From Isoptericola jiangsuensis (GTDB taxonomy: Bacteria; Actinomycetota; Actinomycetes; Actinomycetales; Cellulomonadaceae), in NCBI RefSeq assembly GCF_002563715.1, contig NZ_PDJJ01000001.1, forward strand, positions 3,720,001 to 3,784,000: a stretch of 64,000 nt of DNA. Reading direction: 5' to 3'. Shown here in pieces: positions 2,991 through 34,201 of the stretch. The first letter of the stretch is position 1. Each line of letters begins with the position of its first letter. The notes under the pieces were generated by a model. It did not search any database and had not been told where the DNA came from. It was given only the letters and a program-made list of their open reading frames with translations. Made by a program: the position numbers and the translations under genes.

Positions 2991-3180
2991 GACTCAGCGC
3001 GGACCCACGCGACTCAGCGCGGACCCACGCGACTCAGCGCGGACCCATGCGACTCAGCGCAATGCCACGCGACTCAGCGCGGACCCATGCGACTCAGCGC
3101 AATGCCACGCGACTCAGCGCAATGCCACGCGACTCAGCGCGATCGTGGCCGCGTCAGCGCATACAGATACCACTCGGCGC
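2991..3180 (+). repeat. 20-bp-period intergenic array A (GASTCAGCGC)
   Basis: Ten units at an exact 20-base step: eight perfect GACTCAGCGC decamers at 2991, 3011, 3031, 3051, 3071, 3091, 3111 and 3131, then GCGTCAGCGC at 3151 and CACTCGGCGC at 3171. The intervening decamers are mostly GGACCCAYGC or AATGCCACGC. The array lies between the promoter side of the Rrf2 gene and the 3' end of the rRNA operon. Reading frames through it are not credible genes. The same decamer and step recur in three more intergenic loci in this window. Confidence 0.95.
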
Positions 3181-3517
3181 CGGCGATGCCGGGCCTCCGC
3201 CTGGTCGTCCGGGTCGCCGCCAATGGCACGGCAGGCCGCCGACCGCTGTTGGGCACCGCGCTGCGGCCGCGGGGGCATGGCGTGGATCGTCGGCGAGCCC
3301 GATCTCTCCCGAGCGGTCCTCGCGCCACCCGATGGCGTGCAGTGCGTCCGAGCGTCGGTGCGCGGGTAGGTGCAGTGCGCCCGTGGACGTGATCGTCAGC
3401 CAGCCGGCCAGCCGGCCCAGACTCTTGCCTGGCGCCGTGGCGGGCTGGAACGGGCCTGTCCCGACCTGATCCCGGTCGGGTGACACCCGTCCGGGGCGAC
3501 GATCGGTGGGACAAATG
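3181..3517. other. Intergenic stretch, no gene seen
   Basis: About 340 bases between the repeat array and the rRNA terminator. Frames on both strands are open but give low-complexity Arg/Pro/Ala-rich translations without a plausible start, binding site or family motif. A short hairpin (CCCGACC/GGTCGGG) lies near 3463-3481. Confidence 0.6.
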
Positions 3518-3553
3518 CAGCAGGCCCCCCAACCGGTGGTTGGGGGGGCTGCT
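3518..3553 (-). terminator. rRNA operon terminator
   Basis: The longest and strongest hairpin near the operon end: AGCAGGCCCCCCAACC, a 3-base loop, and a complementary arm with one mismatch, immediately after the 5S gene. On the minus strand it is followed by the T-containing tail GCATTTG. It is correctly placed to terminate 16S-23S-5S transcription. Confidence 0.88.
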
Positions 3554-3561
3554 GTGAAGGG

Positions 3562-3680
3562 TGTCCGGCGGCGTCCTACTCTCCCACCCCGTCTCCAGGG
3601 CAGTACCATCGGCGCTGTAGGGCTGAGCTTCCGGGTTCGGGATGGGACCGGGCGTTTCCCCTACGCTATGACCGCCGTAA
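3562..3680 (-). rRNA. rrf: 5S ribosomal RNA
   Basis: Minus-strand sequence from GTTACGGCGGTCATAGCG through the conserved CCCGGTCCCATCCCGAAC block to GGACGCCGCCGG has the 5S layout, about 119 nt. It follows the 23S gene and precedes the strong operon terminator. Ends are estimated to within a few bases. Confidence 0.95.
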
Positions 3681-3794
3681 CGTTATCGAGTTGTCAGGGT
3701 CCCCCCAGTGTTGGCACCCGTGGTCGTGGGGTGTGGGGGGGTGGTGCCCGTTTCTCGGGAACCGCACAGTGGACGCGTGCATGCAAGTGAATGT

Positions 3795-8945
<5,151 letters not shown>

Positions 8946-9155
8946 AGAAAAACACCACACACCCCAAGGGCGTGCGATGCCAATCGATACTGGCCAGACA
9001 GCTAGCAAAAATCTAGATGTCCGATCCAAAGGAACCAATGAAGGTTCAATAAATTTGGCATTGACTATCAAGCACACTGTTGAGTTCTCAAACAACCGAC
9101 GCACACCATCCGAAGCCCGAACCCTCGTCCGAACCCCGCCCGGGGCAACCCCTCT

Positions 9156-9184
9156 AACTTAGCGCCCCCGCCATTCCCGCGCAA
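9156..9184 (-). promoter_or_regulatory. rRNA promoter P2
   Basis: On the minus strand: TTGCGC (9179-9184), a 17-base spacer, TAAGTT (9156-9161). It lies about 210 bases upstream of mature 16S. Spacing is optimal for the housekeeping sigma factor. Confidence 0.7.
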
Positions 9185-9376
9185 ATCCGCCCCGCTCCGA
9201 AGAACGCCACGAAAAAACACACGAAAAACAACAGAAGACACCCCACCCAGAACCAGAGCGCACAAAACACCCCGACCCAGAAGGAAGATGGTTCCCAACC
9301 CCGGCCCGGCCACCGGTACCCAACCCTCAGGTTGTCTCCTCGGTGTCCGCCTCGCCCGGCGGGCTGAACTCCGAGA

Positions 9377-9405
9377 ACATTACCCACCGGACCGCCCCAC
9401 GTCAA
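9377..9405 (-). promoter_or_regulatory. rRNA promoter P1
   Basis: On the minus strand: TTGACG (9400-9405), a 17-base spacer, TAATGT (9377-9382). This is the best housekeeping-type promoter in the region and would give a leader of about 425 nt before 16S. Confidence 0.78.
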
Positions 9406-10529
9406 CGCGCCCCCACGTGGCCTGCACCACTCCGCGGTCGGCGTCCCTGGTCCCGCCGGCCCCGGTTGCCGCCGGGCGGAGCACCGCGGGGTGCTCGGAG
9501 CCGGTTCCCATCCTCCTGGCTCGTCCCACCGCCGGAGCCGGCCCCACCACACGGCCAGGTCACCCCCGACACCCGTGTCAGCCTCGCTCCGCACGATCAC
9601 CGGCGCCGTCAGGGAGGTCGACCGAGTCTGGGCGGTTCGCCGACAGGTGCGCGGAGCGCCTCACCATGGGCGGAGGGCTCCCTGTGGCCGGCAGCGGCAT
9701 CCTCGACGTCCCGCAACAGTCCCCTGGGCGACGTCCGCCCGATCTCCCGGCGACTGCTCCCCGCGCCTGTGCGACGTCCTGAGGCCGGCCGGCGGCACTC
9801 GCGGCGTCCGCGCCTCCGACGGTGCGCGCCTCCGACGCCCCTTCCTCCCGGAAGGCGCCACGACGGCCCGGCGGGCTCCCCGATGATCACCCGCCTCGCG
9901 TTCCCCGGAGCCGTCACGGTCGGTGAGGACGTGTTCGGTCACGCGAGTGCTGGACCGCACTCCGAGCTGAGCACCCGAGCACCCGAGCATCACCCACCTC
10001 GCGTTCCAGAGCCGTCACGGTCGGTGGGGACGTGTTCGGTCACGCAAGTGCTGGACCGCACTCCGAGCTGAGCACCCGAGCACCCGAGCACGTGAGACGG
10101 GGCGATTCACGTGTCGTCCGGCCGTCACGGGTCATGTCGGACGAACCCCGGGTCCTGCGAGCGTGGTCGTCCGGTGTGCCGCATGGCCGACGGAGGGCGG
10201 CGGCCCGGGCCGCGCCTCCCACACCGATCTCCCGGCGCATCCCACGCCGACCTCCCGGCGCGGCCCTCAGGGACGGACGCCTGCAGCAGCGCGGGCCGAA
10301 CACCGTCCGACACCGCCGGATGCTCCGGTCTGAGTGCACGGAGCCGACACGGGACGCCGACCCGGCAGCCCGCGGGCGCGCACCGCCCATCGTTCGGCGG
10401 GATCGGCCCGTGCGCCGGCCCCGGTTCCCCGGGCGCCCCTTCCCCCACGCGCTCGGGCCGCGCGTGCCGTCGCGACAGCGGAGCTGGGCCGTCCGGGCGC
10501 ACGCGATGCGACGACCGGGAGACGCGAAA
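9406..10529. other. 1.1-kb gap without a recognisable gene
   Basis: The stretch between the rRNA promoters and the tRNA-Arg terminator. All six frames stay open for long runs, as expected at this GC content, but translations are Arg/Pro/Ala/Ser-rich, match no family I recognise and lack convincing ribosome binding sites. It contains one structured feature, the ~102-bp tandem duplication at 9886-10089. It could be an upstream control region or the decayed remains of a gene. Confidence 0.6.
9886..10089. repeat. Tandem duplication of a ~102-bp unit
   Basis: Unit 1 (9886-9988) and unit 2 (9989-10089) both read from ATCACCCRCCTCGCGTTCC through GTCACGGTCGGTGRGGACGT and GTGCTGGACCGCACTCCGAG to the doubled GCACCCGA motif. 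Differences are a few substitutions and one 2-base indel. It is noncoding as far as can be seen. Confidence 0.92.
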
Positions 10530-10569
10530 AGAGCGGCGGCCCGATCCGTGAGGATCGGGCCGCCGCTCT
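10530..10569 (-). terminator. Terminator after tRNA-Arg
   Basis: A near-perfect 17-18 bp stem (GAGCGGCGGCCCGATCC and its complement) with the 4-base loop GTGA lies six bases past the tRNA-Arg 3' end. On the minus strand it is followed by TTTTCGCG. Confidence 0.85.
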
Positions 10570-10574
10570 GTCTG

Positions 10575-10647
10575 TGCGCCCGGAGGGATTCGAACCCCCA
10601 ACCTTCTGATCCGTAGTCAGATGCTCTATCCGTTGAGCTACGGGCGC
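10575..10647 (-). tRNA. tRNA-Arg (ACG)
   Basis: A 73-nt cloverleaf on the minus strand: acceptor GCGCCCG/CGGGCGC, D arm GCTCAACGGATAGAGC, anticodon loop CTACGGA (anticodon ACG) on the TCTGA/TCAGA stem, T arm with GGTTCGAATCC. CCA is not encoded. A promoter-like TTGGGG-17-TAATGT lies just upstream, near 10684-10711. Confidence 0.97.
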
Positions 10648-10800
10648 AGTCTGTCCGGCACTTCCGTGACCGGCCGTCGAGAACATTACCGCGCTCGGGC
10701 CGGATCCCCAAACCGGATCCGGCGATCGTGACCGAGGCCACGATCCGCCGCGTTCTCGACCGACAGAAAAGGCCCCGGGCGACGAGCACCGGAGCCTTCC

Positions 10801-10892
10801 TGGCGGAGACGGCGGGATTTGAACCCGCGAACGGGTTGCCCCGTTACCACCTTAGCAGGGTGGCGCACTAGACCAGACTATGCGACGTCTCC
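10801..10892 (-). tRNA. tRNA-Ser (GCT)
   Basis: A class II tRNA on the minus strand: acceptor GGAGAC/GTCTCC, anticodon loop CTGCTAA (anticodon GCT) on a CACC/GGTG stem, a long variable arm (ACGGGGCAACCCGT) and T loop GTTCAAATC. The 3' CCA is encoded in the DNA, unlike the two neighbouring tRNAs. Confidence 0.97.
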
Positions 10893-10987
10893 ATGCGGCG
10901 AACCACAGAACGGGTCTGCCGCGGCGCCCAGACTAACCGCCAACAGCGGTCAGGGGCAAAGCGCGACGTCGGTGACGCCGCACGGTG

Positions 10988-11075
10988 CGGAGGGCGGGGG
11001 ATTCGAACCCCCGGTGCGGGGTCACCGCACAACGGTTTTCAAGACCGTCACATTCGGCCGCTCTGTCAGCCCTCC
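10988..11075 (-). tRNA. tRNA-Ser (TGA)
   Basis: A class II tRNA on the minus strand: acceptor GGAGGGC/GCCCTCC, anticodon loop CTTGAAA (anticodon TGA) on the ACGGT/ACCGT stem, a long variable arm (TGCGGTGACCCCGCA) and T loop GTTCGAATC. CCA is not encoded. Confidence 0.97.
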
Positions 11076-11107
11076 CAGGCCCGGGCAGTCTAGCCGGGGC
11101 ACGAGCA

Positions 11108-11157
11108 CGGCCGCCGACGGCGCGACCGACCGAGGTCGGTGCGTGCCGTCGACGGCC
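11108..11157 (-). terminator. Terminator of the conservon operon
   Basis: A long interrupted hairpin (CGGCCG, CGACGGC and CCGACC arms paired with GGTCGG, GCCGTCG and CGGCCG) lies right after the cvnD stop codon and before the tRNA-Ser gene. Confidence 0.7.
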
Positions 11158-11163
11158 GGGAGA

Positions 11164-12042
11164 TCAGTTCGCGGTGCTGCCGGAGCGGAGCTGACGCATC
11201 GCGAGCTGGACCAGCGAGATGAGCGTCTGCTTGGTCGCGGCGCGGGAGCGGGCGTCGGTGTAGAGCATCGGCACGTGCGCGGGGATCTGGAGCGCCTCGC
11301 GGACGTCCTCGAGGCGGTGCTTGGCGACGCCGTCGAAGCAGTTCACGCCGACGACGAACGGCACGCCGCGCGACTCGAAGTAGTCGATGGCGGGGAAGCA
11401 CTGCTCGAGGCGGTCGGTGTCGACGAGGACGACCGCGCCGATGGCGCCGCGCACCAGGTCGTCCCACATGAACAGGAAGCGGTCCTGGCCGGGGGTGCCG
11501 AACAGGTACAGCCACAGGTTCCCGGGCAGGGACACCCGACCGAAGTCCATCGCCACCGTGGTGGTGGTCTTGCGGTCGGTGACGCCACCGGCGTCGTCGA
11601 CGCCCACCGAGTGCTCCGTCATCGCGGCCTCGGTGTTGAGGGGCTCGACGTCGGAGATCGACCCGATGAACGTCGTCTTGCCGACGGCGAACCCGCCGGC
11701 GACGACGATCTTCGTGACGGTCGGTGCGGCACCCTGACCGCCCCCGGTCGCCGCCGCAGGCGACGCGGGGCGTGCGCCGGGCTCCGGTGCGGCCGCGGCG
11801 GGCGCCTGGGCCGCCGGCGCCTGCACGGCGGGTGCCGGTGCCTGCGGGGCCGGCGACTCCTGCGTCGGGCCGGCCGGGGCGCCACCGAGCACGCTCTGCC
11901 GGACGGGCGTGGCCGGGGCCTCGTTCACCGGGGCAGGCTGGGCGGCCCACATGCCCGCGCCCGAGGGCTGCGAGACGGGGGCCCAGCTCGGCGAGAACCC
12001 ACCGGCCGACGCGGACGCGCTGTCAGAGGGCGGAAATGCCAT
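11164..12042 (-). CDS. cvnD: Conservon GTPase CvnD with long N-terminal extension
   Basis: A 292-residue Ras-like GTPase of the conservon family. P-loop GGFAVGKTTF near residue 125, switch II LFGTPGQDRF, and the base-specificity motif NCFD are all present. CvnD proteins act with CvnA, B and C in a membrane-associated complex likened to eukaryotic G-protein coupled signalling. The first ~115 residues are a Pro/Ala-rich low-complexity arm, longer than the roughly 190-residue core typical of the family. ATG 12042 is chosen because GGAGAG lies eight bases upstream; a GTG three codons earlier is too close to it. The gene overlaps the end of cvnC by 20 bases, indicating translational coupling. Confidence 0.92.
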   Translation of the reverse strand: MAFPPSDSASASAGGFSPSWAPVSQPSGAGMWAAQPAPVNEAPATPVRQSVLGGAPAGPTQESPAPQAPAPAVQAPAAQAPAAAAPEPGARPASPAAATGGGQGAAPTVTKIVVAGGFAVGKTTFIGSISDVEPLNTEAAMTEHSVGVDDAGGVTDRKTTTTVAMDFGRVSLPGNLWLYLFGTPGQDRFLFMWDDLVRGAIGAVVLVDTDRLEQCFPAIDYFESRGVPFVVGVNCFDGVAKHRLEDVREALQIPAHVPMLYTDARSRAATKQTLISLVQLAMRQLRSGSTAN

Positions 12043-12439: not shown

Positions 12440-12447
12440 GGCCTACC

Positions 12448-12897: not shown

Positions 12898-12967
12898 GCT
12901 TCCTCCTCATCAGGTGCGCTGAGTGTGCGCAGGTCACCGCTGTGCGGGGATGATTCATGGACATCAT

Positions 12968-21240: not shown

Positions 21241-21305
21241 GGGTGACCTCCTTCAGGGACGGCGTGGCCGGTCCGGGGCGGCGCCCCGGACCGGCCACGG
21301 ATGGA

Positions 21306-22974: not shown

Positions 22975-23757
22975 ATGATCGAGCTGAGGAGCCCGCGCGA
23001 GATCGAGGAGATGCGCCCGGCCGGCCAGTTCGTCGCCGAGACGCTCACCGCCGTGCGCGAAGCCGCCAAGCCCGGCGTCAACCTGCTCGAGCTCGACGAG
23101 CTGGCCCACCGCATGATTAAGCAGCGTGGCGCCGAGTCCTGCTACATCGACTACCACCCGTCGTTCGGCGCCAGCCCCTTCGGCAAGGTCATCTGCACCT
23201 CCGTCAACGACGCCGTGCTGCACGGCCTCCCCCACGACTACACCCTCGTCGACGGCGACCTCCTCAGCATCGACTTCGCCGTCGCCGTCGACGGCTGGGT
23301 CTCCGACTCCGCGCTGTCGTTCGTCGTCGGGCAGCCCACCACCCCCGAGCGCGGCGAGGCCGACGCGCAGCTCATCCGCACCACCGAGCTCGCCCTCGAC
23401 GCCGGCATCGCCGCCGCGCAGCCCGGCGGCAAGATCGGCGACATCTCCGCCGCCATCGCCGCCGTCGCCCGCGACGCCGGCTACCGCATCAACACCGACT
23501 TCGGCGGCCACGGCGTCGGGCGCACCATGCACGGCGACCCCCACGTCCCCAACGACGGCCGCGCCGGCCGCGGCTACCCCCTGCGCCCCGGCCTCGTCAT
23601 CGCCATCGAGCCGTGGTTCCTCGAGACCACCGACGAGATCTACACCGACGACGACGGCTGGACCCTCCGCTCCGCCGACGGCTCCCGCGGCGCCCACTCC
23701 GAGCACACCGTCGCCATCACCGCCGACGGCCCGCTGGTCCTCACCGCCCGCGACTGA
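22975..23757 (+). CDS. map: Methionine aminopeptidase, type I
   Basis: A 260-residue MetAP that removes N-terminal methionine from nascent proteins in the cytosol. The five metal ligands can be located: Asp in DFAVAVDGWVSD (two), His in GGHGVGRTMH, Glu in AIEPW, Glu in SEHTVAI. No N-terminal zinc-finger extension, so it is the short form. ATG with GGAAGGA upstream. It is not in the secY-adk-map ribosomal cluster, so the genome may hold a second copy. A terminator and repeat array B follow. Confidence 0.96.
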   Translation: MIELRSPREIEEMRPAGQFVAETLTAVREAAKPGVNLLELDELAHRMIKQRGAESCYIDYHPSFGASPFGKVICTSVNDAVLHGLPHDYTLVDGDLLSIDFAVAVDGWVSDSALSFVVGQPTTPERGEADAQLIRTTELALDAGIAAAQPGGKIGDISAAIAAVARDAGYRINTDFGGHGVGRTMHGDPHVPNDGRAGRGYPLRPGLVIAIEPWFLETTDEIYTDDDGWTLRSADGSRGAHSEHTVAITADGPLVLTARD

Positions 23758-23766
23758 CCCCGACCC

Positions 23767-23808: not shown

Positions 23809-23830
23809 GTCGTCCCCGCACACCCGGCGC

Positions 23831-24020
23831 GACTCAGCGCAGGTTCCCGCGAGTCAGCGCAGAGCCCCGCGAGTCAGCGCGCATCCCCCCGACTCAGCGT
23901 TGTCTTCCGCGAGTCAGCGCAGAGCCCCGCGAGTCAGCGCAGATCCCCCCGACTCAGCGCTCGTTGGCGCGAGTCAGCGCAGATCTCGCTGAGTCAGCGC
24001 GACATTCCGCCAGTCAGCGC
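23831..24020 (+). repeat. 20-bp-period intergenic array B1 (GASTCAGCGC)
   Basis: Ten units at an exact 20-base step (23831 to 24011): GACTCAGCGC, GAGTCAGCGC, variants GACTCAGCGT and CAGTCAGCGC. The decamers between are looser (AGGTTCCCGC, AGAGCCCCGC, AGATCCCCCC and others). It faces rightward and lies just after map. Confidence 0.95.
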
Positions 24021-24230
24021 AGGACGACGCCCGCCGGCTCCACATGTCCTCGACGCACACGTCCGAGACCGCGGCCACCGAGCGGGCCCCGCGGAAGAAC
24101 ACCGGCACGGCCGCAGCTCGAAGGACGGTCAAGGTGGCCGCGCGGCGTCGTCCATCCCGAAGTGGAGGGCGCCCCGCGCCCGTGAACGCGACGACGCGCG
24201 GCCACCTCCACCGTCCGGAACCGGACGTGC
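24021..24230. other. Spacer between oppositely oriented arrays, with a hairpin
   Basis: A 210-base segment bounded on the left by forward units and on the right by inverted units of the same repeat. It contains an imperfect 16-bp hairpin, GGTGGCCGCGCG...TCGT (24133-24151) pairing with ACGACGCGCGGCCACC (24191-24206). Open frames on both strands match no family and run into the repeats, so no gene is called. Confidence 0.65.
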
Positions 24231-24300
24231 GCACTGACTCGGCGACATCTGCGCTGACTCGCGCCGATGAGCGCTGAGTCGCGGGAACCTGCGCTGAGTC
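24231..24300 (-). repeat. 20-bp-period intergenic array B2, inverted
   Basis: Four units at a 20-base step in the opposite orientation: GCACTGACTC (24231), GCGCTGACTC (24251), GCGCTGAGTC (24271 and 24291). It ends four bases before the stop codon of the HAD phosphatase gene. Confidence 0.92.
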
Positions 24301-24303
24301 GTG

Positions 24304-25107
24304 TCAGAGGAGCGGGCGCAGGGCGTCGACGGCGCCGTGCTCGTCGATCGAGCCGGTCACCTCGTCCGCCGCCGCCTTCACCGCGTCGTCCGCGTGGCCC
24401 ATCGCGACGCCGCGGGCCGCCCAGCGCAGCATGTCGAGGTCGTTGTGCCCGTCGCCGAGCGCCATCGTGCGGACCGGGGGCACGCCGACGGCGGCGCGCA
24501 CCTTCTCCAGGGCGGTCGCCTTGGTGACGCCGTGCGGCGCGATGTCCATCCAGGCGGTCCAGCCGACGGCGTAGGTGACGTCGTCGTAGCCGAGGCGGGA
24601 CACGAGGGCGTGGAAGGCGTCGCTGGTCGACTCGGGGCTGCGCACGATGACGCGCGTGACCTCCTGGGACCACAGCTCCTCGAAGTCGACGACGGCGAAC
24701 GTGCCGTCGAGCTCACCCTCGGGGAAGAGCTCGTTCATGCGGAAGCCGACGCCGAGGTCCTCGACGGCGTAGCGGGCGTCGGGGAGCTCCTCGCGCAGGA
24801 GGCGCAGGGCGGGCTCGGGGTCGAACGTGACCATCTCGGCGACGCGCCATCCGCGCGGTTCGGTGGGGTCGAGCTCGACGGTGACGGCGCCGTTGGAGCA
24901 GACCATCCAGCCGGTCTCGATGCCGAGGGCCTCGGCGACGGGCAGCATCGCGACGAGCGACCGCCCGGAGGCGAGGACGACCTCGTGCCCGGCGGCCCGG
25001 ACCGCGACGACGGCGTCGCGCACCTCGTCGGCGAGCGCGCCGTCGTAGGTGAGGAGCGTGCCGTCGATGTCGAGCGCGACGAGCGCCCTGCCCGCGGGTG
25101 CCGGCAC
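24304..25107 (-). CDS. Cof-type HAD-IIB phosphatase
   Basis: A 267-residue HAD hydrolase. Motif I LDIDGTLL with nucleophile and acid Asp near residues 13 and 15; motif II LASGR; motif III Lys in GVTKATALEKV; motif IV GDGHNDLDML. The large C2B cap between motifs II and III identifies the Cof/YbjI/SupH group, which dephosphorylates sugar phosphates, FMN or PLP. The exact substrate is unknown. It starts at GTG one base after the serS stop codon, so it is cotranscribed and probably translationally coupled with serS, a pairing seen in other actinobacteria. Confidence 0.93.
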   Translation of the reverse strand: MPAPAGRALVALDIDGTLLTYDGALADEVRDAVVAVRAAGHEVVLASGRSLVAMLPVAEALGIETGWMVCSNGAVTVELDPTEPRGWRVAEMVTFDPEPALRLLREELPDARYAVEDLGVGFRMNELFPEGELDGTFAVVDFEELWSQEVTRVIVRSPESTSDAFHALVSRLGYDDVTYAVGWTAWMDIAPHGVTKATALEKVRAAVGVPPVRTMALGDGHNDLDMLRWAARGVAMGHADDAVKAAADEVTGSIDEHGAVDALRPLL

Positions 25108-25108
25108 G

Positions 25109-26377
25109 TCAGCGCACCGGCTCGAGGACCTCGAGGCCGCCGAGGTAGGGCCGCAGCCCTTCGGGGACGCGGACGGACCCGTCGGGCTGCTGGTGGTTCT
25201 CGAGGATGGCGACGATCCAGCGGGTCGTGCCGAGGGTGCCGTTGAGGGTCGCGACGGTGCGGGTGCCGTCCTCGGTGCGTTCGCGCACGTTCATGCGGCG
25301 GGCCTGGAACGTCGTGCAGTTCGACGTCGACGTGAGCTCGAGGTAGCGCTCCTGGGTGGGCAGCCACGCCTCGCAGTCGAACTTGCGGGCGGCGGACGTG
25401 CCGAGGTCGCCCGCGGCGGTGTCGATGACGCGGTACGGCAGCTCGACCTTCGCCATCATCGCCTCCTCCCAGGCGAGGAGACGCTCGTGCTCCGCGGCGG
25501 CGTCCTCGACGGCGCAGTAGGAGAACATCTCGACCTTCTGGAACTGGTGCACGCGGATGATGCCGCGCACGTCCTTGCCGTGCGAGCCCGCCTCGCGGCG
25601 GTAGCAGGCGCTCCAGCCGGCGTACCGCTTGGGGCCGGCGGACAGGTCGAGGATCTCGTCGCCGTGGTAGCCGGCGAGCGCGACCTCGGAGGTGCCGACG
25701 AGGTACAGGTCGTCACGCTCGAGCCGGTAGATCTCGTCGGCGTGGGCGCCGAGGAACCCGGTGCCGCGCATCGTGTCCGGGGTGACGAGCGTGGGCGTGA
25801 TCATCGGGGTGAACCCGGCCTGGACGGCCTGGTCCATGGCCGCGTTGAGGATCGCGAGCTCGAGGCGCGCGCCGACACCGGTGAGGAAGTAGAAGCGCGA
25901 GCCCGACACCTTCGCGCCGCGGGTCGTGTCGATCGCGCCCAGGCCCTCGCCGATCGCGAGGTGGTCGCGCGGCTCGAAACCCTCGGCCGCGAAGTCGCGC
26001 GGCGTGCCGACGTGCTTGAGCGTCACGAAGTCCGCCTCGCCGCCGGCGGGGGCGCCCTCGACGACGTTCGGGATGCGGTACAGCAGCTCGTCGAGCTCCG
26101 CCTCGGCGTCGTTGGCGGCCGCCTGGTGCGCCTTGACCTCGTCGGCGAGCGCCTTGGTGCGGGTCAGCAGCGCCGTCTTCTCGTCGCCGGACGCCTGCGC
26201 GACCTGCTTGCCCATCGACTTCTGCTCCGCGCGCAGCGACTCGAACTGCGACAGGGAGGACCGCCGTCGGGCGTCCGCGGACAGCGCCGCGTCCACCAGG
26301 GTCGGGTCCTCGCCGCGGGCCTGCTGGCTCGCGCGGACGACGTCGGGGTTGTCGCGCAGGAGTCGGATGTCGATCAC
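25109..26377 (-). CDS. serS: Seryl-tRNA synthetase
   Basis: A 422-residue class II synthetase that charges tRNA-Ser. N-terminal coiled-coil arm about residues 28-105 ([17 protein letters not shown] at the start, then heptad-like helices) binds the long variable arm of tRNA-Ser. Motif 2 [20 protein letters not shown] and motif 3 with GLRPYLGG are intact. The GTG start at 26377 fits the family N-terminus; longer frames run through the repeat array. No ribosome binding site is seen; on the minus strand TAGGCT (26385-26390) lies seven bases before the GTG, indicating a leaderless mRNA. Two tRNA-Ser genes are also in the window, but not adjacent. Confidence 0.97.
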
Positions 26378-26403
26378 GCCCGCAAGCCTAACGGCCGGGC
26401 GTC

Positions 26404-26613
26404 GCGCTGACCCCCGCCGTCCGGTGCCGGCTCGCTGGGATCTACGCTGACTCGCGGGCACCTGCGCTGACTCGCGGGGATCCGCGCTGAGTCGCCGGAA
26501 CCTGCGCTGACTCGCGGGGATCCGCGCTGAGTCGCCGGAACCTGCGCTGACTCGCGGGGATCCGCACTGACTGACGGCGTCCTGCGCTGACTCACGGCGG
26601 GGTGCTCCGACCC
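26404..26613 (-). repeat. 20-bp-period intergenic array C (inverted GASTCAGCGC)
   Basis: About ten or eleven units at a 20-base step. Clear decamers at 26444 (ACGCTGACTC), 26464, 26484, 26504, 26524, 26544, 26564 (GCACTGACTG) and 26584; weaker ones at 26404 (GCGCTGACCC), 26424 and 26604. GACTC and GAGTC forms alternate in the middle units, and spacer decamers GCGGGGATCC and GCCGGAACCT alternate with them, giving a 40-base super-period. It fills the space between the divergent serS and diacylglycerol-kinase promoters. Confidence 0.93.
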
Positions 26614-26687
26614 GCGGGAGGGCGAAGGTGGGCCGTCTCACGTGGTGGCCGGTCGCGGGTTCGGGCGAACAGTCCTAGATTTCCGTC

Positions 26688-27779
26688 ATGCCGTGGGAGC
26701 TCATCGTCGGGATCGTCGCGCTCGTCATCGGCCTCACCGCGCTCGTGGTCGCGCTGGTGGTGCTGCGTCGCAGCCGCGCGCAGCACGCCGCGCCTGCGGC
26801 CGACTCGTCGACGCGTGCCGTCGCCGGACCGCAGGTCGCCGTCATCGTCAACCCCTCCAAGGAGCACACCCGCCAGGTCGCGGAGACCGTGCGGCGCCTG
26901 GCCGCGGAGGCCGCGCTGCCCGAGCCCCGCTTCTACGACACCACGGTCGAGGACCCCGGCACCGGGCAGGCCCGGCAGGCCCTCGACGACGGCGCGGACG
27001 TCGTGGTCGCCGCCGGCGGGGACGGCACGGTCCGGGCGGTGGCCGACGGGCTGGTCGGCTCCGGCCGACCGATGGGCATCATCCCGGCGGGGACGGGCAA
27101 CCTCCTCGCCCGCAACCTCGACCTGCCGCTCGCCGACGTCGAGGAGGCGTTCGCCGTGGTCCTCGGTGGCGTCGACCGCACCATCGACGTCGGCCGCCTC
27201 AAGATCGTGCGCACCGCCGACGACGACGGCGACGGTGCGGAGGAGGGCAGCGCGCACCTGTTCCTCGTCATCGCCGGCCTCGGGTTCGACGCCGCCATGG
27301 TCGCCGACGCCGACGACGCCCTCAAGGCGCGCGTCGGCTGGGTCGCGTACTTCCTCGCCGGGGTGCGCCACCTGCACGGGCGGCGCCTGCGCGCCACCAT
27401 CGGGGTCGACGACCGGCCCGTCGTCGAGGCACGCCTGCGCACCGTCATGGTGGGCAACTGCGGGCGTCTGCCCGGCGGGATCACGCTCCTGCCCGACGCC
27501 GTCATCGACGACGGCGAGCTCGACGTCGCCGCCATCGACACGCGCGGCGGGCTGGCCGGGTGGGCGCAGCTCCTCGGCGAGGTCGTCGCCCAGGGCATGG
27601 GGATGCAGAACGACCTCAAGGTGAAGATCGGCCGCATCGACCACGTGCGCGCCAAGCGCGCGACGATCGTCGTCGAGGGCGGCGAGCAGGCGCAGGTCGA
27701 CGGCGAGGTCCTCGGCAAGGCGCTCGAGCTGGAGACGTGGGTGGAGCCGGGCGCCCTGGTGGTGCGCACCCCGGCCTGA
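26688..27779 (+). CDS. Diacylglycerol kinase-like lipid kinase, membrane-tethered
   Basis: A 363-residue protein: one membrane helix (residues 5-27), then a DAGK catalytic domain with VAVIVNPSK, the nucleotide motif GGDGTVRAV near 108 and GTGNLLARNL near 134, and the C-terminal beta domain with GGITLLPDAVIDDGELDV. The family phosphorylates diacylglycerol, sphingosine or related lipids at the membrane. An N-terminal helix in front of the kinase is a less common arrangement. ATG at 26688 with no ribosome binding site; TAGATT (26676-26681) lies six bases upstream, so the mRNA is likely leaderless. It is divergent from serS across repeat array C. Confidence 0.92.
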   Translation: MPWELIVGIVALVIGLTALVVALVVLRRSRAQHAAPAADSSTRAVAGPQVAVIVNPSKEHTRQVAETVRRLAAEAALPEPRFYDTTVEDPGTGQARQALDDGADVVVAAGGDGTVRAVADGLVGSGRPMGIIPAGTGNLLARNLDLPLADVEEAFAVVLGGVDRTIDVGRLKIVRTADDDGDGAEEGSAHLFLVIAGLGFDAAMVADADDALKARVGWVAYFLAGVRHLHGRRLRATIGVDDRPVVEARLRTVMVGNCGRLPGGITLLPDAVIDDGELDVAAIDTRGGLAGWAQLLGEVVAQGMGMQNDLKVKIGRIDHVRAKRATIVVEGGEQAQVDGEVLGKALELETWVEPGALVVRTPA

Positions 27780-27861
27780 GGACGTCCGATCTGCGCGGAG
27801 TCGGCACACGGTGTCCCGTATCCGCCCACGTCGGCGGGACGTCGCCGCATAGGCTGACCCG

Positions 27862-30800
27862 GTGCGTCCGTCCGTCCGTCCTGCTGCCCTCGTGCTCGGC
27901 CTGCTGTGCACCGTCCTGCTCGCCCTCCTGCCGACGACCGCGCAGGCGGACGACGCGACCCCGGCCGACACGCCGCTCGTGCTGGCGGGCGTGGCCGGGC
28001 TGCGGTGGAGCGACGTCGACGCCGCGCGCACGCCCCACCTGTGGCGGCTCGTGGGCGGCGGGTCGGTCGCGTCGTCGTCGGTGCGCACCCTGACGCCGAC
28101 GTGCGCGCAGGACGCGTGGCTGTCGCTGTCGGCGGGCAGCCGGGTCGTCACGACCACCGAGGAGACGGAACCCGCCGAGGAGGGCGGCGCGGGCGGGGAC
28201 GACGAGCAGGACGTCACCACGTGCCCGCCGCTGCCCACGGTGGCCGCGCCGCACGCTGCGGACGCCCCGCAGCCCGCCCGGGTGCCCGGCTGGGACGCCC
28301 TCGTGGCGCCGGACGGCGAGGCGTCCGACCCGGTGACGGCCGCGCCGGGGGCGCTGGCGACCCTCGCGGACGCCGTCGGGGGCTGCACCACCGCGGTGGG
28401 ACCGGGCGGCGCGCTCGCGCTGGCCGACCCCGGCGGTGACGTCGCGCGGTACGTGGGCGACGAGGAGGACCTCACCGCCGACGACGTCGCCACGTGCGCC
28501 GTGACCGTCGTGGACCTCGGGGAGCTCCCCGACGCGGCGGTCGAGCGCAGCGCCGCCGTCGGGGAGGTGGACGCGGCCGTCGGGCGCCTGGCGGACCTGC
28601 TGCCCGCCGGTGGGCGCCTGGTCGTCGCGGGCCTCGCCGACACCCCCCTCGGCCCGGTCGACCTGCAGGTCGTCGTCGACTGGACCTCCCCCGGCGGCGG
28701 CGCGACGTGGCTGACGTCGACGTCGTCCCGCTGGCCCGGCGTCGTGGTCACGGGCGACCTGTCGGCGACGCTCGCCGACGCGCTGCTGGAGGGCTCCGAC
28801 CCGGAGGACCCCGCCGTCGCCGAGGCGGCGGCCGCGTTCACCGGCTCGCCGCTGGAGCACGGCGAGGACCGTCGGCTCAGCGTGGCGCGCACGGTCGAGA
28901 ACCGGCAGTACCTGTCCGTGCTGACCGAGACGCTCCCGCGCATGACGCCGGTGCTCGTGGGGGCCGCCGCGCTCGGCGTCGTCGCCGCGGTGGGCTGGCT
29001 GCTGGTGTCCCGGCGTCGCCGGGCGGCCGACACCGAGGACGCCCCTGGGGGCACCGTCGAGCCGGGTGCGCGGCCGGGGCACGGGACGCGTCTCGCCCTG
29101 GCCGTGCTGGCGCTCGCCGCGAGCGTGCCCGGCGCCGCCACCCTGGCCACGCTGTCCCGCTGGTGGGTGTGGGACACCCCCGTGACCGTGCTGTCCCTCG
29201 CGGTGCCCGCGGCCGCCCTCGCGCTCGCCCTGGCCGCCTGGTGGGCGCGCCGGCTGCTGCCGCGCTCCCCCTGGCGGCTGCCGACGACGCTCGCCGCCGC
29301 GACGTGGCTCGTGCTGACCGTGGACGGCCTCACCGGGACCACGCTCCAGCAGGGGTCCCTGCTCGGGCCGGCTCCGTCGCTGGGCGCCCGGTTCTACGGG
29401 TTCTCCAACTCGGTGTTCGCCGTCTACTCGGTGGTGGGGATCGTCCTGGCCGCGGGCGCCGTCGCGGTGCTGCGGAACGCCGGGGCGGGCCGGCGCGCGC
29501 AGGTGCTCACGGCCTCCGCCGTCGCGGTCGTCACCGTCGCGGTCGACGGCCTGCCGCCCTTCGGCGCCGATTTCGGCGGCATCCTCGCCCTCGTGCCGGC
29601 GTTCGCGGTGCTCGTCCTCGGCGTCGCCGGGACCCGGCTGACGTGGCGGCTCGTCGCGCTCGTCGCCGGGGCGACCGTCCTGCTGGTCGCCGTCGTCGCC
29701 GTCGCGGACTGGGCGAGCCCGCCGTCGACGCACCTCGGCGGGTTCGTGCAGGCCGTCCTCGACGGCAGCGCGCTGACCGTGGTCGGCGGCAAGGCCGCCG
29801 GCGCGTGGGCGACCGTCGCCAACCCCGTCGGCGCAGCCGCCGCGGTCGTCTGCGCGGCGGTCGGCTGGGCCGTGCTCGACCCGCGTCGCGCCCGCCTGCA
29901 CGGTCTCGCCGCCGCCTACGACCGGGACCCCCTGCTGCGGCGCACCGTCGTCGCCCTCGTGACGGTAGCGGTCGTGGGCACGCTGCTCAACGACTCCGGG
30001 ATCGTCGTGGCGGGGTACGTGGTGCTGTTCGCCACGGCCGTGCTGCTGGTCGGCCCCTTGGACGTCCGGCTCGGCGCCCTGCCCGGCGGGGAGCGCGGGA
30101 CCGCCTGGCACCTGGCCGGGGCGACGGCCGGGCTCGCGCTGCTGCTCCAGCTCGGTGGCGCGGCCCTGCCCGCGACGGGCCACGCCGGTGACGTCTCCGC
30201 GGGCGGCGAGCCCGTCGTCGAGGCCGACGCCCCCGTGGTCCTCGTCGGCACCGACGGGGTGCGCTGGCAGGACGTCTCCCCCACCGCGACGCCCACCCTG
30301 TGGCGGATGCTGCGCGACGGCGCGAGCGCGGGCGGAGTGACCACCGGGTCGACGGGCGCGTCCGGCGACTGCGTCGCCGCGGGCTGGCTCGGGCTGTCGG
30401 CGGGTCGCAGCCCGGTGACGGGCAGCACGCAGGACGACGTGTGGCGCTGCGCGGACTGGACGGTCGAGCCCGGCGACGACGGCGCGGCCGCGGTCGACGG
30501 CTGGGACGACCTGACGGCGCTGCAGTCGGCGTCGGAGTTCAACCCCCACCCGGGCGTGCTCGGCGACACGTTCGCCGCCGGCGACGTGTGCACCACCGCC
30601 GTCGGGCCGGGGGCCGCGCTGGCCCTCGCGACGACCGACGGCACCGTGGCGCGCTACCGCGACCTCGACGCGGCGCTGGCCGACCCGGACGACACGTTCT
30701 CGTGCCCGGTGACCGTGGTCGACGCGGGCGCCGCGCCGTACCACCCGACCGGTACCACGACGAGCACCACCCGGCCCGTGCCCGACGACGCGACGACGCC

Positions 30801-32319
30801 CGGTGACGCGCGGGACGCGGCGCTGCGGGCCGTCGACGCCCGCGTGCGGGGCGTCGTGGAGGCCGCGCCCGCGGACGCCACGGTGCTGGTGCTGGACGTC
30901 GGCAACCCCGCGCCGACCCGCCCGGCGCTCGGCATGGGCGTGGCCCGCACCGACACCGAGTCCGCGCCGTCCTACCTGACGTCCACGGCGACCCGCTGGC
31001 TGGGCGTGGTGCGCCTCCTGGACGTGCCGCCGACGCTCGTGGAGAGCTTCGACCTGCCGCGACCCGCCGACTTCTCGGGGGCGCCGCTGGCGCTGGGCGA
31101 CCACCGGCCCGCGAGCACGGAGACGACGGTCGAGGACCTCGCGGCCCTCACCGACCGCGACCACTCGTTGCGGGTCGTCACCGGCACCGTGACGGGGGTG
31201 CCCACGTACGTGGCGCTGGCCGCGTTCCTGCTGGTGGTGCTGGCCCTGCCGGGCGTCCGCCGGCGCCGGTCCGCGCGCACGGTGGCGGTGTGGGAGCGGA
31301 CGCTGGAGGCGGTGCTGCTGGTGTGCGCGGCCGTGCCCGCCGCGACGTTCCTCATGACGACGTGGTCGTGGTGGCGGCTGCCCGACCCGGTGGCGGGCCT
31401 GTGGACGGCCCTGCTGGGCTGCACGGCCCTGGTCGCGGCCGTGGGCACGCTGGCGCCGCGCCGGCCGGCGTGGGCCGGGCCGGTGCTGGTGTCCTGGGTG
31501 ACGTTCGTCGAGCTGTCGGTGGACGCCGTGCTCGGCACGCCGCTGCACCGGGGCAGCCCCCTGGGCGCCGCCCCCACGCTGGGCGGCCGGTTCTACGGGT
31601 TCGGCAATCCCACCTACTCCGTGTACGCGGTCGTGGCGGTGCTTGCCGCAGCCGGTCTGGCCACCGTCGTGACGCGGCGCTGGAACCGGGTGGCGGGGGC
31701 CGTCGCGGCCTCGCTGGTGGGCCTCGTGGCGCTCGTGGTGACGGTGTGGCCGACGTTCGGCGTGGACGTCGGCGGCGGCCTGGTGCTGGTCCCGGTGTTC
31801 GTCGTGGTGGTGCTGGCCGTGCTCGGAGCCCGGCTCACGTGGCAGCGCATGCTGCTGGCCGGGGGCGCCGGCGTCCTGCTGGTGGCCGTCATCGGCGTGC
31901 TCGACTGGCTGCGCCCCGCCGCCGAGCGCTCCCACCTGGGCGCGTTCGTGCAGTCGGTCGTGGACGGCACGGCGTTCGAGACGGTGTGGCGCAAGGCCGG
32001 GTACGCGCTGCGGTCCCTCGACAGCGGCCCGCCCGCGTGGCTGTCGCTGGCGGTGCTGGTGGCGGTCGTCCTGCTGCTGTGGGGCGGTCCGCGGTTCCGT
32101 GCGCGCTGGCTGGAGCGCACGCAGGAGGCGTGGCCGCTGCTGCGGGCCGTGCTCGTCGCGCTCCTCCTCGCGGGCGTGGGCGGAGCGCTGGTCAACGACT
32201 ACGGCATCCGCGTGGTGACGATCATGCTGTTCCCGGCCGTGCCGCTGCTGGGGCTGCTGGTGCTCCGGGTGGCGTCCCCGATAGCCTCCGCCGCGAAGGG
32301 ACCTGAGCAGAGCGTGTGA
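27862..32319 (+). CDS. 1,485-residue membrane protein made of two homologous halves
   Basis: Signal-type N-terminus (ALVLGLLCTVLLALLPTTAQA). Each half has an extracytoplasmic domain reminiscent of alkaline-phosphatase-like phosphodiesterases, followed by a multi-helix membrane domain. Matching landmarks: LAGVAGLRWSDV (residue 33) with LVGTDGVRWQDV (about 794); LSLSAG with LGLSAG; FYGFSNSVFAVYSVV (about 513) with FYGFGNPTYSVYAVV (about 1245); GADFGG with GVDVGG; LLNDSGI with LVNDYGI. The metal-binding pattern of sulfatases is not obvious, so an enzymatic role is unproven. GTG start; TAGGCT (27850-27855) six bases upstream indicates a leaderless mRNA. Function unknown; perhaps envelope biogenesis. 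The fusion is discussed in the findings. Confidence 0.85.
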   Translation: MRPSVRPAALVLGLLCTVLLALLPTTAQADDATPADTPLVLAGVAGLRWSDVDAARTPHLWRLVGGGSVASSSVRTLTPTCAQDAWLSLSAGSRVVTTTEETEPAEEGGAGGDDEQDVTTCPPLPTVAAPHAADAPQPARVPGWDALVAPDGEASDPVTAAPGALATLADAVGGCTTAVGPGGALALADPGGDVARYVGDEEDLTADDVATCAVTVVDLGELPDAAVERSAAVGEVDAAVGRLADLLPAGGRLVVAGLADTPLGPVDLQVVVDWTSPGGGATWLTSTSSRWPGVVVTGDLSATLADALLEGSDPEDPAVAEAAAAFTGSPLEHGEDRRLSVARTVENRQYLSVLTETLPRMTPVLVGAAALGVVAAVGWLLVSRRRRAADTEDAPGGTVEPGARPGHGTRLALAVLALAASVPGAATLATLSRWWVWDTPVTVLSLAVPAAALALALAAWWARRLLPRSPWRLPTTLAAATWLVLTVDGLTGTTLQQGSLLGPAPSLGARFYGFSNSVFAVYSVVGIVLAAGAVAVLRNAGAGRRAQVLTASAVAVVTVAVDGLPPFGADFGGILALVPAFAVLVLGVAGTRLTWRLVALVAGATVLLVAVVAVADWASPPSTHLGGFVQAVLDGSALTVVGGKAAGAWATVANPVGAAAAVVCAAVGWAVLDPRRARLHGLAAAYDRDPLLRRTVVALVTVAVVGTLLNDSGIVVAGYVVLFATAVLLVGPLDVRLGALPGGERGTAWHLAGATAGLALLLQLGGAALPATGHAGDVSAGGEPVVEADAPVVLVGTDGVRWQDVSPTATPTLWRMLRDGASAGGVTTGSTGASGDCVAAGWLGLSAGRSPVTGSTQDDVWRCADWTVEPGDDGAAAVDGWDDLTALQSASEFNPHPGVLGDTFAAGDVCTTAVGPGAALALATTDGTVARYRDLDAALADPDDTFSCPVTVVDAGAAPYHPTGTTTSTTRPVPDDATTPGDARDAALRAVDARVRGVVEAAPADATVLVLDVGNPAPTRPALGMGVARTDTESAPSYLTSTATRWLGVVRLLDVPPTLVESFDLPRPADFSGAPLALGDHRPASTETTVEDLAALTDRDHSLRVVTGTVTGVPTYVALAAFLLVVLALPGVRRRRSARTVAVWERTLEAVLLVCAAVPAATFLMTTWSWWRLPDPVAGLWTALLGCTALVAAVGTLAPRRPAWAGPVLVSWVTFVELSVDAVLGTPLHRGSPLGAAPTLGGRFYGFGNPTYSVYAVVAVLAAAGLATVVTRRWNRVAGAVAASLVGLVALVVTVWPTFGVDVGGGLVLVPVFVVVVLAVLGARLTWQRMLLAGGAGVLLVAVIGVLDWLRPAAERSHLGAFVQSVVDGTAFETVWRKAGYALRSLDSGPPAWLSLAVLVAVVLLLWGGPRFRARWLERTQEAWPLLRAVLVALLLAGVGGALVNDYGIRVVTIMLFPAVPLLGLLVLRVASPIASAAKGPEQSV

Positions 32320-32353
32320 CACGCCGACGCGGCGGGAATCATCTCGGCGTGTC
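32318..32353 (+). terminator. Hairpin after the two-half membrane protein
   Basis: A perfect 10-bp stem, GACACGCCGA (32318-32327) and TCGGCGTGTC (32344-32353), overlaps the stop codon. It may terminate the gene, or be an operator for the gene at 32401. Confidence 0.5.
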
Positions 32354-32400
32354 GCACGTTATGTCAGGCGGTCACCCATCCCACCCGAACGAGGAGCATC

Positions 32401-32817
32401 GTGCGACGCATCCCCCGGAAGGTCGAGGTCGAGGACGATTCCGGCCACGTCACCCGCTACGTCCGCCACGACAACGGCGAGGGCTACGCCTCGCCGCGCG
32501 CGTCGGTCCACGTCGACGCCGTCGTCGAGCCCGGCGCCTACGTCGAGGAGGGCGCCCACGTGGCCGCCCGCGCGCGCGTCGGCCGGTACAGCTGGATCGA
32601 CGTCGACGCCGTCGTCGGCACGGGCGCCAGCATCGGCGCCGGGGTCCACGTCGGCCGCCGCGGCCACGTCGGCGCCGGAGCCCGGATCGGTGCGCACGCC
32701 CGGCTCGGGCACGACGTCCACGTCGCCCCCGGGGCCGTCGTCGAGCCCGACGAGATCGTCCCGTCCGGCACCGAGGTGCTGCCCGCCGCGCGCCGCACCG
32801 CCGACGCCGCCGCCTGA
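32401..32817 (+). CDS. Small left-handed beta-helix (hexapeptide-repeat) protein
   Basis: A 138-residue protein. Residues 30-120 are hexapeptide repeats with aliphatic i positions and frequent Gly (VEPGAYVEEGAHVAARARVG, then ASIGAGVHVG), forming a left-handed parallel beta helix as in acyltransferases and gamma-class carbonic anhydrases. No catalytic His clearly matches a known transferase motif and there is no C-terminal cap, so enzyme activity is uncertain. GTG start with GAGGAG six bases upstream. It sits alone between the large membrane protein and the YihY gene. Confidence 0.8.
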   Translation: MRRIPRKVEVEDDSGHVTRYVRHDNGEGYASPRASVHVDAVVEPGAYVEEGAHVAARARVGRYSWIDVDAVVGTGASIGAGVHVGRRGHVGAGARIGAHARLGHDVHVAPGAVVEPDEIVPSGTEVLPAARRTADAAA

Positions 32818-32972
32818 CGCACCACCCGTCCCCCGCTGACGCGCACCGTCGGCGGTGACACCCCCGCACCCGACACCCGCACGCCGTCGACCTGCGCCCT
32901 CACGTTGCAGGCCGACGGCACGGCGGCGACCCTGAAGGCTGGACATCCGGCGGACGGGACGAGGAGCGGACG

Positions 32973-34100
32973 ATGGCGGGAACCGAGTCAGGGCCGACAC
33001 GACCGGACACGGACGACGGCGTCCCCCTGGAGGCGATCGCCCCCGAGGACCCCGTCACCGAAGGACACGACCGGGCCCGGCCCGCCTACGGCCAGGCGCT
33101 GAAGAGCACCCTGCGGGAGTTCTCCGAGGACGGCTGCACCGACCTCGCCGCCGCCCTCACCTACTACTCGGTGATGGCGTCCGCGCCCGCGATCCTCGCA
33201 CTCGTCTCCCTGCTCGGATTCGTCGGGGACGCCGAGGCCGCCCTCGACTCGATCACCACCGCGCTCGAGGAGTTCCTCCCGCAGGAGACCCTCGACATCA
33301 TCACGCCCCTCATCGACAACGCCCTCACCTCCACCGGTGCGGGCTTCGCCCTCATCGCCGGCCTCGTGCTGGCGCTGTGGTCGGCCTCCGGGTACGTCGG
33401 CGCGTTCGGGCGCGCCATGAACGTCGTCTACGAGGTCGCCGAGGGCCGCCCCGTGTGGAAGCTCCGGCCCGTCATGTACGCGATCACCCTCGCCGTCGTG
33501 CTGCTCGCCGTCGTCATCGTCGCCAGCCTCGTGCTCTCCGGGCCGATCGTCTCCGCCGTCGGGGACGCCGTCGGGCTCTCGGCCGCCGCGCTCACCGTGT
33601 GGAACATCGCCAAGTGGCCCGTCGCGCTCCTGCTGGTCGTGTTCGTCGTCGCGCTGCTCTACCACTTCACCCCGAACGTCAAGCACCCCCGGTTCCGGTG
33701 GACCAGTCTCGGCTCGGCCGTCGCCATCGGCATCTGGATCCTCGCCTCGGCCGGCTTCGCGTTCTACGTGACGAGTTTCAGCTACGGGTCGACCTACGGC
33801 ACCCTCGGCACCGTCATCGTGTTCCTGCTGTGGCTGTGGATCACCAACCTCGCCCTGCTGCTCGGCGCCGAGCTCGACTCCGAGATCGAGCGCAGCCGCG
33901 AGCTGCGCGACGGCTACGAGGCCGAGGTCACGCTGCAGCTGCCGCCCCGCGACACCCGCGCGTCGGACAAAAAGGCCGCCAAGAAGGCCGAGTCCGTCGC
34001 CGAGGCGCGCGAGGTGCGCCAGGCGGCCACCGCCGACCAGGACGTCGCCGCCACGCGGACGGACTCCGCGTCGTCGACATCGTCCCCGACGGCCGACTGA
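32973..34100 (+). CDS. YihY/BrkB family membrane protein
   Basis: A 375-residue protein. Conserved N-terminal stretch CTDLAAALTYYSVMASAPAI, six membrane helices, and FTPNVKHPRFRWTSLGSA followed by YGSTYGTLGTVIVFLLWLW are diagnostic of the YihY (formerly RNase BN) family. It is an inner-membrane protein of unknown function, and is not the RNase. The C-terminal 70 residues are charged, with KKAAKKAES, and likely cytosolic. ATG start with GAGGAG seven bases upstream. Confidence 0.93.
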   Translation: MAGTESGPTRPDTDDGVPLEAIAPEDPVTEGHDRARPAYGQALKSTLREFSEDGCTDLAAALTYYSVMASAPAILALVSLLGFVGDAEAALDSITTALEEFLPQETLDIITPLIDNALTSTGAGFALIAGLVLALWSASGYVGAFGRAMNVVYEVAEGRPVWKLRPVMYAITLAVVLLAVVIVASLVLSGPIVSAVGDAVGLSAAALTVWNIAKWPVALLLVVFVVALLYHFTPNVKHPRFRWTSLGSAVAIGIWILASAGFAFYVTSFSYGSTYGTLGTVIVFLLWLWITNLALLLGAELDSEIERSRELRDGYEAEVTLQLPPRDTRASDKKAAKKAESVAEAREVRQAATADQDVAATRTDSASSTSSPTAD

Positions 34101-34111
34101 CGCCGGACCGT

Positions 34112-34201
34112 GCGCTGACTCGCGGGACCCTGCGCTGACTCGCCGGGCCGCGCGCTGACTCGCCGGGCCGCGCGCTGAGTCGCCGGGCCCTGCGCTGAGT
34201 C
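34112..34201 (-). repeat. 20-bp-period intergenic array D (inverted GASTCAGCGC)
   Basis: Five perfect decamers at an exact 20-base step: GCGCTGACTC at 34112, 34132 and 34152, then GCGCTGAGTC at 34172 and 34192. Spacers are GCGGGACCCT, GCCGGGCCGC (two) and GCCGGGCCCT. It lies between two convergent genes, 11 bases after the YihY stop codon. Confidence 0.95.

What the first reader, a model, noticed from the sequence alone, without database searches (positions are those of the whole stretch)
2991..34201. Family of intergenic arrays with an exact 20-bp period and conserved GASTCAGCGC decamer
Four intergenic loci (2991-3180, 23831-24300, 26404-26613, 34112-34201) hold about 38-40 copies of GASTCAGCGC, always at a 20-base step, with looser decamers between (consensus roughly AGRTCCCCGC). 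They never enter a gene. Four independent loci in 64 kb implies many in the genome. The step is close to two helical turns, so every core faces one side of the DNA. Seen directly. A binding array for a nucleoid, bending or transcription-roadblock protein, or a replicating noncoding repeat, are inferences. I know of no named element with this unit.
Basis: seen in the sequence. Interest (0 to 1): 0.78.

Follow-up and report, generated by a model that had tools for sequence, protein, structure and literature searches.

The report
Switching 20-bp binding-site arrays in Isoptericola
This bacterium and its relatives carry many short arrays of one repeated DNA word, mostly 20 bases apart and often between genes that point at each other, and the word changes between lineages while many arrays stay in the same places, which suggests sites for an unknown DNA-binding factor.

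Summary
The window has 30 exact GASTCAGCGC (0.93 expected), all in five arrays with a 20-bp step; the genome has 303 such pairs. The genus is Isoptericola.

The decamer is one variant of a wider family, roughly CGANNNAG. Eleven of 17 other genomes of the genus have the same kind of array with core CGAGGTAG. Further variants: CGAGTCAG without the GCGC tail in I. sediminis (one array seen) and CGAGATAG/CGAGTTAG in another genus. On a four-protein tree CGAGGTAG looks ancestral, with a change to CGASTCAG probably twice.

Arrays sit at the same intergenic sites in species with different cores (G000 against G017: shared 8, one only 4+1, neither 178; p=1.2e-10), with no CGAGGTAG pair left in G000 or G012. 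They favour convergent gene pairs: 38 of 254, against 4 of 253 divergent and 27 of 853 tandem. Cores are conserved, spacers vary. Units are not hairpins and no Y1/RAYT transposase was found in 18 genomes, so they are not REPs.

Best reading: site arrays for an unidentified sequence-specific factor acting near gene 3' ends, perhaps a roadblock. Factor and function are inferred.

The parts
2991..3180 (+). Array 1: 10 phased units, 8 exact. Between an Rrf2-like gene (2366-2605, -) and the 5S end of the rRNA operon (5S 3563-3679, -)
23831..24020 (+). Array 2: 10 units, 8 exact, downstream of an M24 peptidase-family gene (22975-23757, +); faces array 3
24123..24216 (-). Separate long hairpin element with conserved cap (cap core 24156-24189) between the face-to-face arrays 2 and 3
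   Evidence: (other copies folded); outer limits read by eye from the sequence
24231..24300 (-). Array 3: 4 units, 3 exact, downstream of a HAD hydrolase gene (24304-25107, -)
26404..26593 (-). Array 4: 9 units, 6 exact, in the divergent region between serS (25109-26377, -) and a diacylglycerol-kinase-like gene (26688-27779, +); an exception to the convergent preference
   Evidence: serS named from its conserved N-terminus (recalled) and relatives found with it
34112..34201 (-). Array 5: 5 exact units between a BrkB-family gene (32973-34100, +) and a very long gene (34250-43120, -): convergent

Best explanation
The arrays are tandem recognition sites for an unidentified, sequence-specific DNA-binding factor that acts near the 3' ends of genes, above all between convergent genes. 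The core (CGANNNAG, here CGASTCAGCGC) is the contact site and the spacer only sets the step; neighbouring units let the factor load cooperatively, with a polarity given by the core. When the factor's specificity changes in a lineage, the cores follow at the retained array sites. The job I think most likely is a protein roadblock that ends or insulates transcription between convergent genes, alongside or in place of the long hairpins found there. Shown: anatomy, core conservation against spacer variation, convergent preference, shared sites with different cores. Inferred: the factor, cooperative binding, termination.
For: Core columns carry 1.0-2.0 bits and most spacer columns 0.02-0.6 bits in 292 G000 and 102 G012 units. 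Convergent intergenic regions with arrays: 38 of 254, divergent 4 of 253, tandem 27 of 853 over four genomes (Fisher p about 3e-4 to 8e-4 in each of G000, G012, G001). Sites shared across a core difference: G000 against G017 both 8, one only 4 and 1, neither 178, p=1.2e-10; G000 against G001 both 6, 3, 4, 141, p=9.8e-7. CGAGGTAG pairs: 0 in G000 and G012, 286 in G001, 171 in G017. Of 58 opposite-arm unit pairs, spacer identity is near that between unrelated arrays, so pairing of arms as an RNA stem is not kept. Array-less convergent regions of at least 60 bp have a stem of 12 bp or more in 81 of 94 cases (shuffled 4%), array-bearing ones, outside the array, in 15 of 38, p=1.7e-7. At convergent sites arrays read in the sense of the nearest gene end 69 to 33, p=5e-4.
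Against: No factor was identified and no expression or binding data exist. The hairpin-replacement signal depends on little unmasked sequence: array regions with at least 80 unmasked bases have a hairpin in 14 of 16 cases, and only one orthologous site was really informative across relatives. Orientation bias is absent at tandem sites (33 to 26) and in the scattered G000 convergent arrays (13 sense, 16 anti). Array 4 of the window lies in a divergent region. In several relatives the arms do form strong stems at the M24/HAD site (G005, G006, G004, G010). CGAGGTAG occurs singly in antisense in genes without depletion. Shared sites could also come from independent colonisation of the same favourable regions.
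Confidence: 0.4

Rival explanations
1. Selfish or passive dispersed repeat: arrays grow by local unit duplication and spread by an unknown route; convergent regions only tolerate them because they hold no promoters.
For: Convergent preference is expected of tolerated repeats (REPs show it too, abstract and passages of PMC3733652). Copy number varies steeply between close relatives: 226 pairs in G008, 46 in G011, 0 in G009. Adjacent spacers within an array are somewhat more alike than spacers of different arrays (about 7.2 against 5.9 of 12 in G000).
Against: Spacers differ freely while cores do not, and cores differ between species at shared sites, which a simply copied sequence does not explain. 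No Y1/RAYT transposase in 18 of 18 genomes; no array found in viral contigs for either core (two CGAGGTAG hits, both 10-bp microsatellites by eye); no plasmid or phage match to one array by blastn.
Confidence: 0.28
2. RNA-level 3'-end element: face-to-face arrays form hairpins in the transcript that end transcription or protect the mRNA.
For: Face-to-face order is the commonest mixed order at convergent sites. In Oerskovia, Promicromonospora and G005 the arms at the M24/HAD site are near-perfect inverted repeats. Head-to-head pairs with a 2-bp gap make a perfect 22-bp palindrome in G000 and G012.
Against: Many convergent arrays have one orientation only; opposite-arm spacers are no more complementary than chance in G000, G012, G001, G017 (58 pairs); single units are not hairpins; a pure stem needs complementarity, not one fixed core.
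Confidence: 0.15
3. Chromosome-organising sites (in the manner of nucleoid-occlusion or supercoil-control sites), placed at convergent 3' ends because positive supercoils gather there.
For: Arrays are concentrated in the origin-near half: G000 36 of 41 clusters, G001 35 of 46 (KS p about 6e-6 and 1e-5).
Against: The unrelated cap hairpins show the same bias (23 of 27 in G000, 23 of 28 in G012), so the bias may be a general property of the chromosome. No factor known. The clusters counted are a subset of arrays with particular unit combinations.
Confidence: 0.12
4. DNA-uptake or self-recognition marks, with lineage-specific dialects as in Neisseriaceae.
For: Species-specific cores in hundreds of copies resemble the reported DUS dialects (abstract of PMC3630211).
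Against: Tight tandem arrays and near-absence from genes (0 of 156 CGASTCAGCG outside arrays in 464 kb of G000) are not needed for uptake. Competence genes were not examined.
Confidence: 0.05

Closest known systems
REP / BIME elements (GTAG- and CGTC-tagged repetitive extragenic palindromes)
   Same: Short, in hundreds of copies, intergenic, favouring gene 3' ends and convergent regions, paired in opposite orientation; the CGAGGTAG core holds GTAG.
   Different: Units are not palindromic or hairpin-forming beyond shuffles; the G000/G012 core lacks GTAG; no Y1/RAYT gene in 18 genomes; direct-repeat arrays with a fixed step.
DNA uptake sequences of Neisseriaceae and their dialects
   Same: A short core fixed within a species and different between related species.
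   Different: Tandem 20-bp arrays, confined to intergenic DNA; uptake not tested.
Tandem recognition arrays such as eukaryotic rDNA terminator boxes (TTF-I/Reb1), ParR/omega-type centromere or operator repeats, BldC direct repeats (all recalled, no call)
   Same: Polar, repeated sites near two helical turns or less apart; in the rDNA case at 3' ends.
   Different: Here many loci across the chromosome, unknown binder, changing core.
Cyanobacterial short tandemly repeated repetitive sequences (recalled, no call)
   Same: Tandem short units in intergenic DNA.
   Different: Here each unit is a fixed core plus a free spacer.

Membership tests
REP / BIME | Palindromic, stem-forming unit | tested here: not met
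   Longest stem per 30-mer: 4.4-4.6 against 4.7-4.9 in shuffles in four genomes; stems of at least 6 bp in G017 25 of 96 against 18.5%
REP / BIME | GTAG or CGTC tag | tested here: inconclusive
   GTAG is inside CGAGGTAG but absent from CGASTCAG of G000 and G012
REP / BIME | Y1/RAYT transposase in the genome (GTAG type) | tested here: not met
   PF01797: 0 of 18 genus genomes; control genomes ring in 5 of 14
REP / BIME | Intergenic, unidirectional and convergent regions | tested here: met
CRISPR array | Repeats of about 24-48 bp with unique spacers (passage of PMC3733652) | tested here: not met
   Core of about 8-12 bp, step 20 bp, similar spacers
Canonical intrinsic terminator | Hairpin followed by a T run | tested here: not met
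   Hairpin plus T run downstream of array-bearing ends no more frequent than in shuffles (crude scan)
DNA uptake sequence | Promotes uptake; cognate ComP-type receptor | not tested
   No competence gene searched
Rfam RNA families | Match at gathering score | tested here: not met
   Only rRNA and tRNA in the window; one weak match near the hairpin element, mir-1909, 24 bits against 80

The most novel reading that the evidence does not exclude
A protein-dependent 3'-end or insulation system spread over a bacterial chromosome: polar site arrays that stand in for hairpins between convergent genes, whose recognition word has been rewritten at the arrays of a whole genome probably at least twice in one genus while the array positions were kept, implying a fast-changing DNA-binding factor that drags its sites along.
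Probability: 0.2. Interest if true: 0.9.

Novelty: new variant of a known kind. Interest (0 to 1): 0.62.

Why it matters
If a lineage-wide change of a recognition word at retained sites is confirmed, these genomes are a natural experiment on how a DNA-binding protein and hundreds of its sites change together. The pairs G000/G012 against G017, and G002 against its sister G017, would allow the factor to be found by correlating protein changes with core changes. If the arrays end or insulate transcription, they would be a bacterial counterpart to protein-dependent terminator boxes.

Tried and rejected
Avoidance of the core in genes: one search gave 0 of 156 CGASTCAGCG outside arrays in G000 against 11.8 by a first-order Markov model, which looked like avoidance; codon-preserving shuffles expect about 0.3-0.4 per strand in genes, so the claim is dropped.

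Strand bias by replichore: one search suggested it, but its list shows forward matches first and is cut, so no inference was made.

Selection for RNA stems between arms: not supported in four genomes. REP/RAYT: rejected. Viral or plasmid carriers: nothing, with blastn poorly suited to repeats. Helical phasing as an explanation: weakened by other periods. De novo search for arrays in G003, G009, G013 (about 100 kb each) gave no clear array; parts read N.

Literature: searches (141 papers hold a decamer, 40 listed; 1,060 hold, 15 listed; 0; 3; 0; 165, 12 listed; 33, 12 listed; 3) surfaced no description of these arrays by title or abstract start; this is not proof of absence from print. Papers: PMC3733652 abstract and passages; PMC3630211 abstract and outline; PMC5217627 one passage; the others listings only.

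Full report
Observation. Thirty exact GASTCAGCGC occur in the window against 0.93 expected, all in five arrays in four intergenic regions; 38 units when up to two mismatches in phase are allowed. The window is G000:C1:3720001-3784000 of a 4.04-Mb chromosome that holds 160 + 143 pairs at this spacing. The species of the window itself was not named.

Unit. In 292 G000 units and 102 G012 units the core CGASTCAGCGC carries about 1.0 to 2.0 bits per column and the middle spacer columns 0.02 to 0.6. G000 uses C or G at the fourth base (about one third C), G012 almost only G. Besides face-to-face arrays there are head-to-head pairs with exactly 2 bp between cores, a perfect 22-bp palindrome GCGCTGACTCGCGAGTCAGCGC in most copies, in both G000 and G012: of the nine G000 and G012 head-to-head pairs closer than 60 bp, seven have a 2-bp and two a 17-bp gap.

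Family and dialects. The exact pair pattern occurs in 2 of 118 genomes, G000 and G012. The pattern CGAGGTAG-N12-CGAGGTAG occurs in 18 of 118: 11 of the 17 other genus members (14 to 286 pairs) and, in small numbers, 7 other genomes of the family; 0 of 46 same-order genomes. Three CGASNNAG units at 20 bp occur in 30 of 221 family genomes, 14 of 18 in the genus; many of the other hits are single chance-like matches, but G263 of another genus has 69 + 54. G263 uses CGAGATAG and CGAGTTAG (two convergent sites in 40 kb); a Promicromonosporaceae MAG has CGAGTTAG (L114). G002 has no CGAGGTAG pair and no GASTCAGCGC pair but 31 CGASNNAG triples; the one array seen in about 180 kb reads CGAGTCAG without the GCGC tail, face to face at a convergent site. 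Periods of 19, 21 and about 16-17 bp occur in Oerskovia, G005 and Promicromonospora.

Tree. A four-protein tree (serS, HAD, DAGK-like, M24) puts G000+G012 (support 100) beside a clade of G008, G009, G011, G016 and G017+G002 (support 100 for the clade and for the last pair); CGAGGTAG users surround both. The simplest reading is an ancestral CGAGGTAG, one change on the G000/G012 stem and another in G002. The second rests on one array; shared ancestral polymorphism is not excluded.

Position. In 464 kb of G000 and 400 kb each of G012, G001, G017 arrays occupy 11 of 66, 8 of 57, 11 of 64 and 8 of 67 convergent regions, 1 of 67, 0 of 57, 3 of 63 and 0 of 66 divergent ones, and 10 of 241, 6 of 206, 7 of 216 and 4 of 190 tandem ones. 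Gene calls are home-made from codon usage. Orthologous regions: G000 against G017 both 8, G000 only 4, G017 only 1, neither 178 (p=1.2e-10); G000 against G001 6, 3, 4, 141 (9.8e-7); G000 against G012 10, 1, 0, 225. At the eight G000/G017 shared sites every orientation seen in G017 also occurs in G000, but this is weakly informative because most sites hold both. For G012 against G001, one of two single-orientation sites disagrees. No CGAGGTAG pair remains in G000 or G012. Independent colonisation of the same favourable regions is the alternative to change in place.

One site across the family. In 39 loci around serS the convergent M24/HAD region carries units of this family in 12 of the 17 Isoptericola genomes read there (G009 not read; one search shows a 3-bp gap) and in Oerskovia, some Promicromonospora and Cellulosimicrobium; eight loci could not be read at this site. 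Others have unrelated hairpins or almost no gap. In CGAGGTAG species the TAG of the core often is the stop codon of the upstream gene. Stops touching arrays are in sense with the array 59 times and antisense 17 times over four genomes, with some regions counted for both genes.

Function. Array-less convergent regions of at least 60 bp have a stem of 12 bp or more in 81 of 94 cases (4% in shuffles), tandem ones in 124 of 362, divergent ones in 27 of 223, so long hairpins without a clear T run look like the usual 3'-end element here. Array-bearing convergent regions have one outside the array in 15 of 38 (p=1.7e-7). This fits arrays standing in for hairpins, but where at least 80 bases remain beside the array a hairpin is present in 14 of 16, and only one orthologous site could be compared widely. 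At convergent sites arrays point in the sense of the nearest gene 69 to 33; at tandem sites 33 to 26; the scattered G000 convergent loci run 13 to 16 against the rule. Opposite-arm spacers are not complementary beyond chance (58 pairs), which speaks against an RNA stem as the selected thing in these four genomes.

Chromosome. dnaA lies at 56.5 kb in G000 and 0.6 kb in G001. Array clusters with given unit combinations lie in the origin-near half in 36 of 41 (G000) and 35 of 46 (G001) cases, but so do the cap hairpins, 23 of 27 and, in G012, 23 of 28. The bias is real in these samples and not specific to arrays.

Judgement. What is shown is a family of intergenic site arrays with a conserved, lineage-specific core and retained positions. 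What it most likely works like is a set of binding sites for a sequence-specific factor, acting at 3' ends. It is not a REP (unit not palindromic, no Y1 transposase). The factor is unknown and the terminator role is a guess with partial support.

Noticed in passing
window 24123-24216; L063, L066, L070 and others: A second repeat family: long hairpin with covarying stem and conserved cap GCGTTCACG-N12..18-CTCCACYYCGGG. 30 copies in G000, 29 in G012, at least one in all 18 genus genomes and in 7 other family genomes; folds with z about -9.3 to -10 (three copies); often in the middle between face-to-face arrays. No Rfam match at gathering score in the window.
   Followed up: partly
G000, G012, G001, G017 stretches: Most convergent regions of at least 60 bp without arrays hold a long near-perfect hairpin with no marked T run (81 of 94), suggesting U-less hairpin terminators in this genus.
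   Followed up: partly
window 9879-10090: Two copies of a 101-bp tandem repeat (92% matches) upstream of the rRNA operon region.
   Followed up: no
window 50291-61666 and 34250-43120: Two very long reverse-strand genes; the first holds about 14 repeats of 408 bp (52287-58232), the second about 3 of 324 bp (34419-35354).
   Followed up: no
G009 and G013 near serS (L100, L247-L254): Runs of N sit in some convergent or divergent regions of these drafts, so arrays there could be missed.
   Followed up: no
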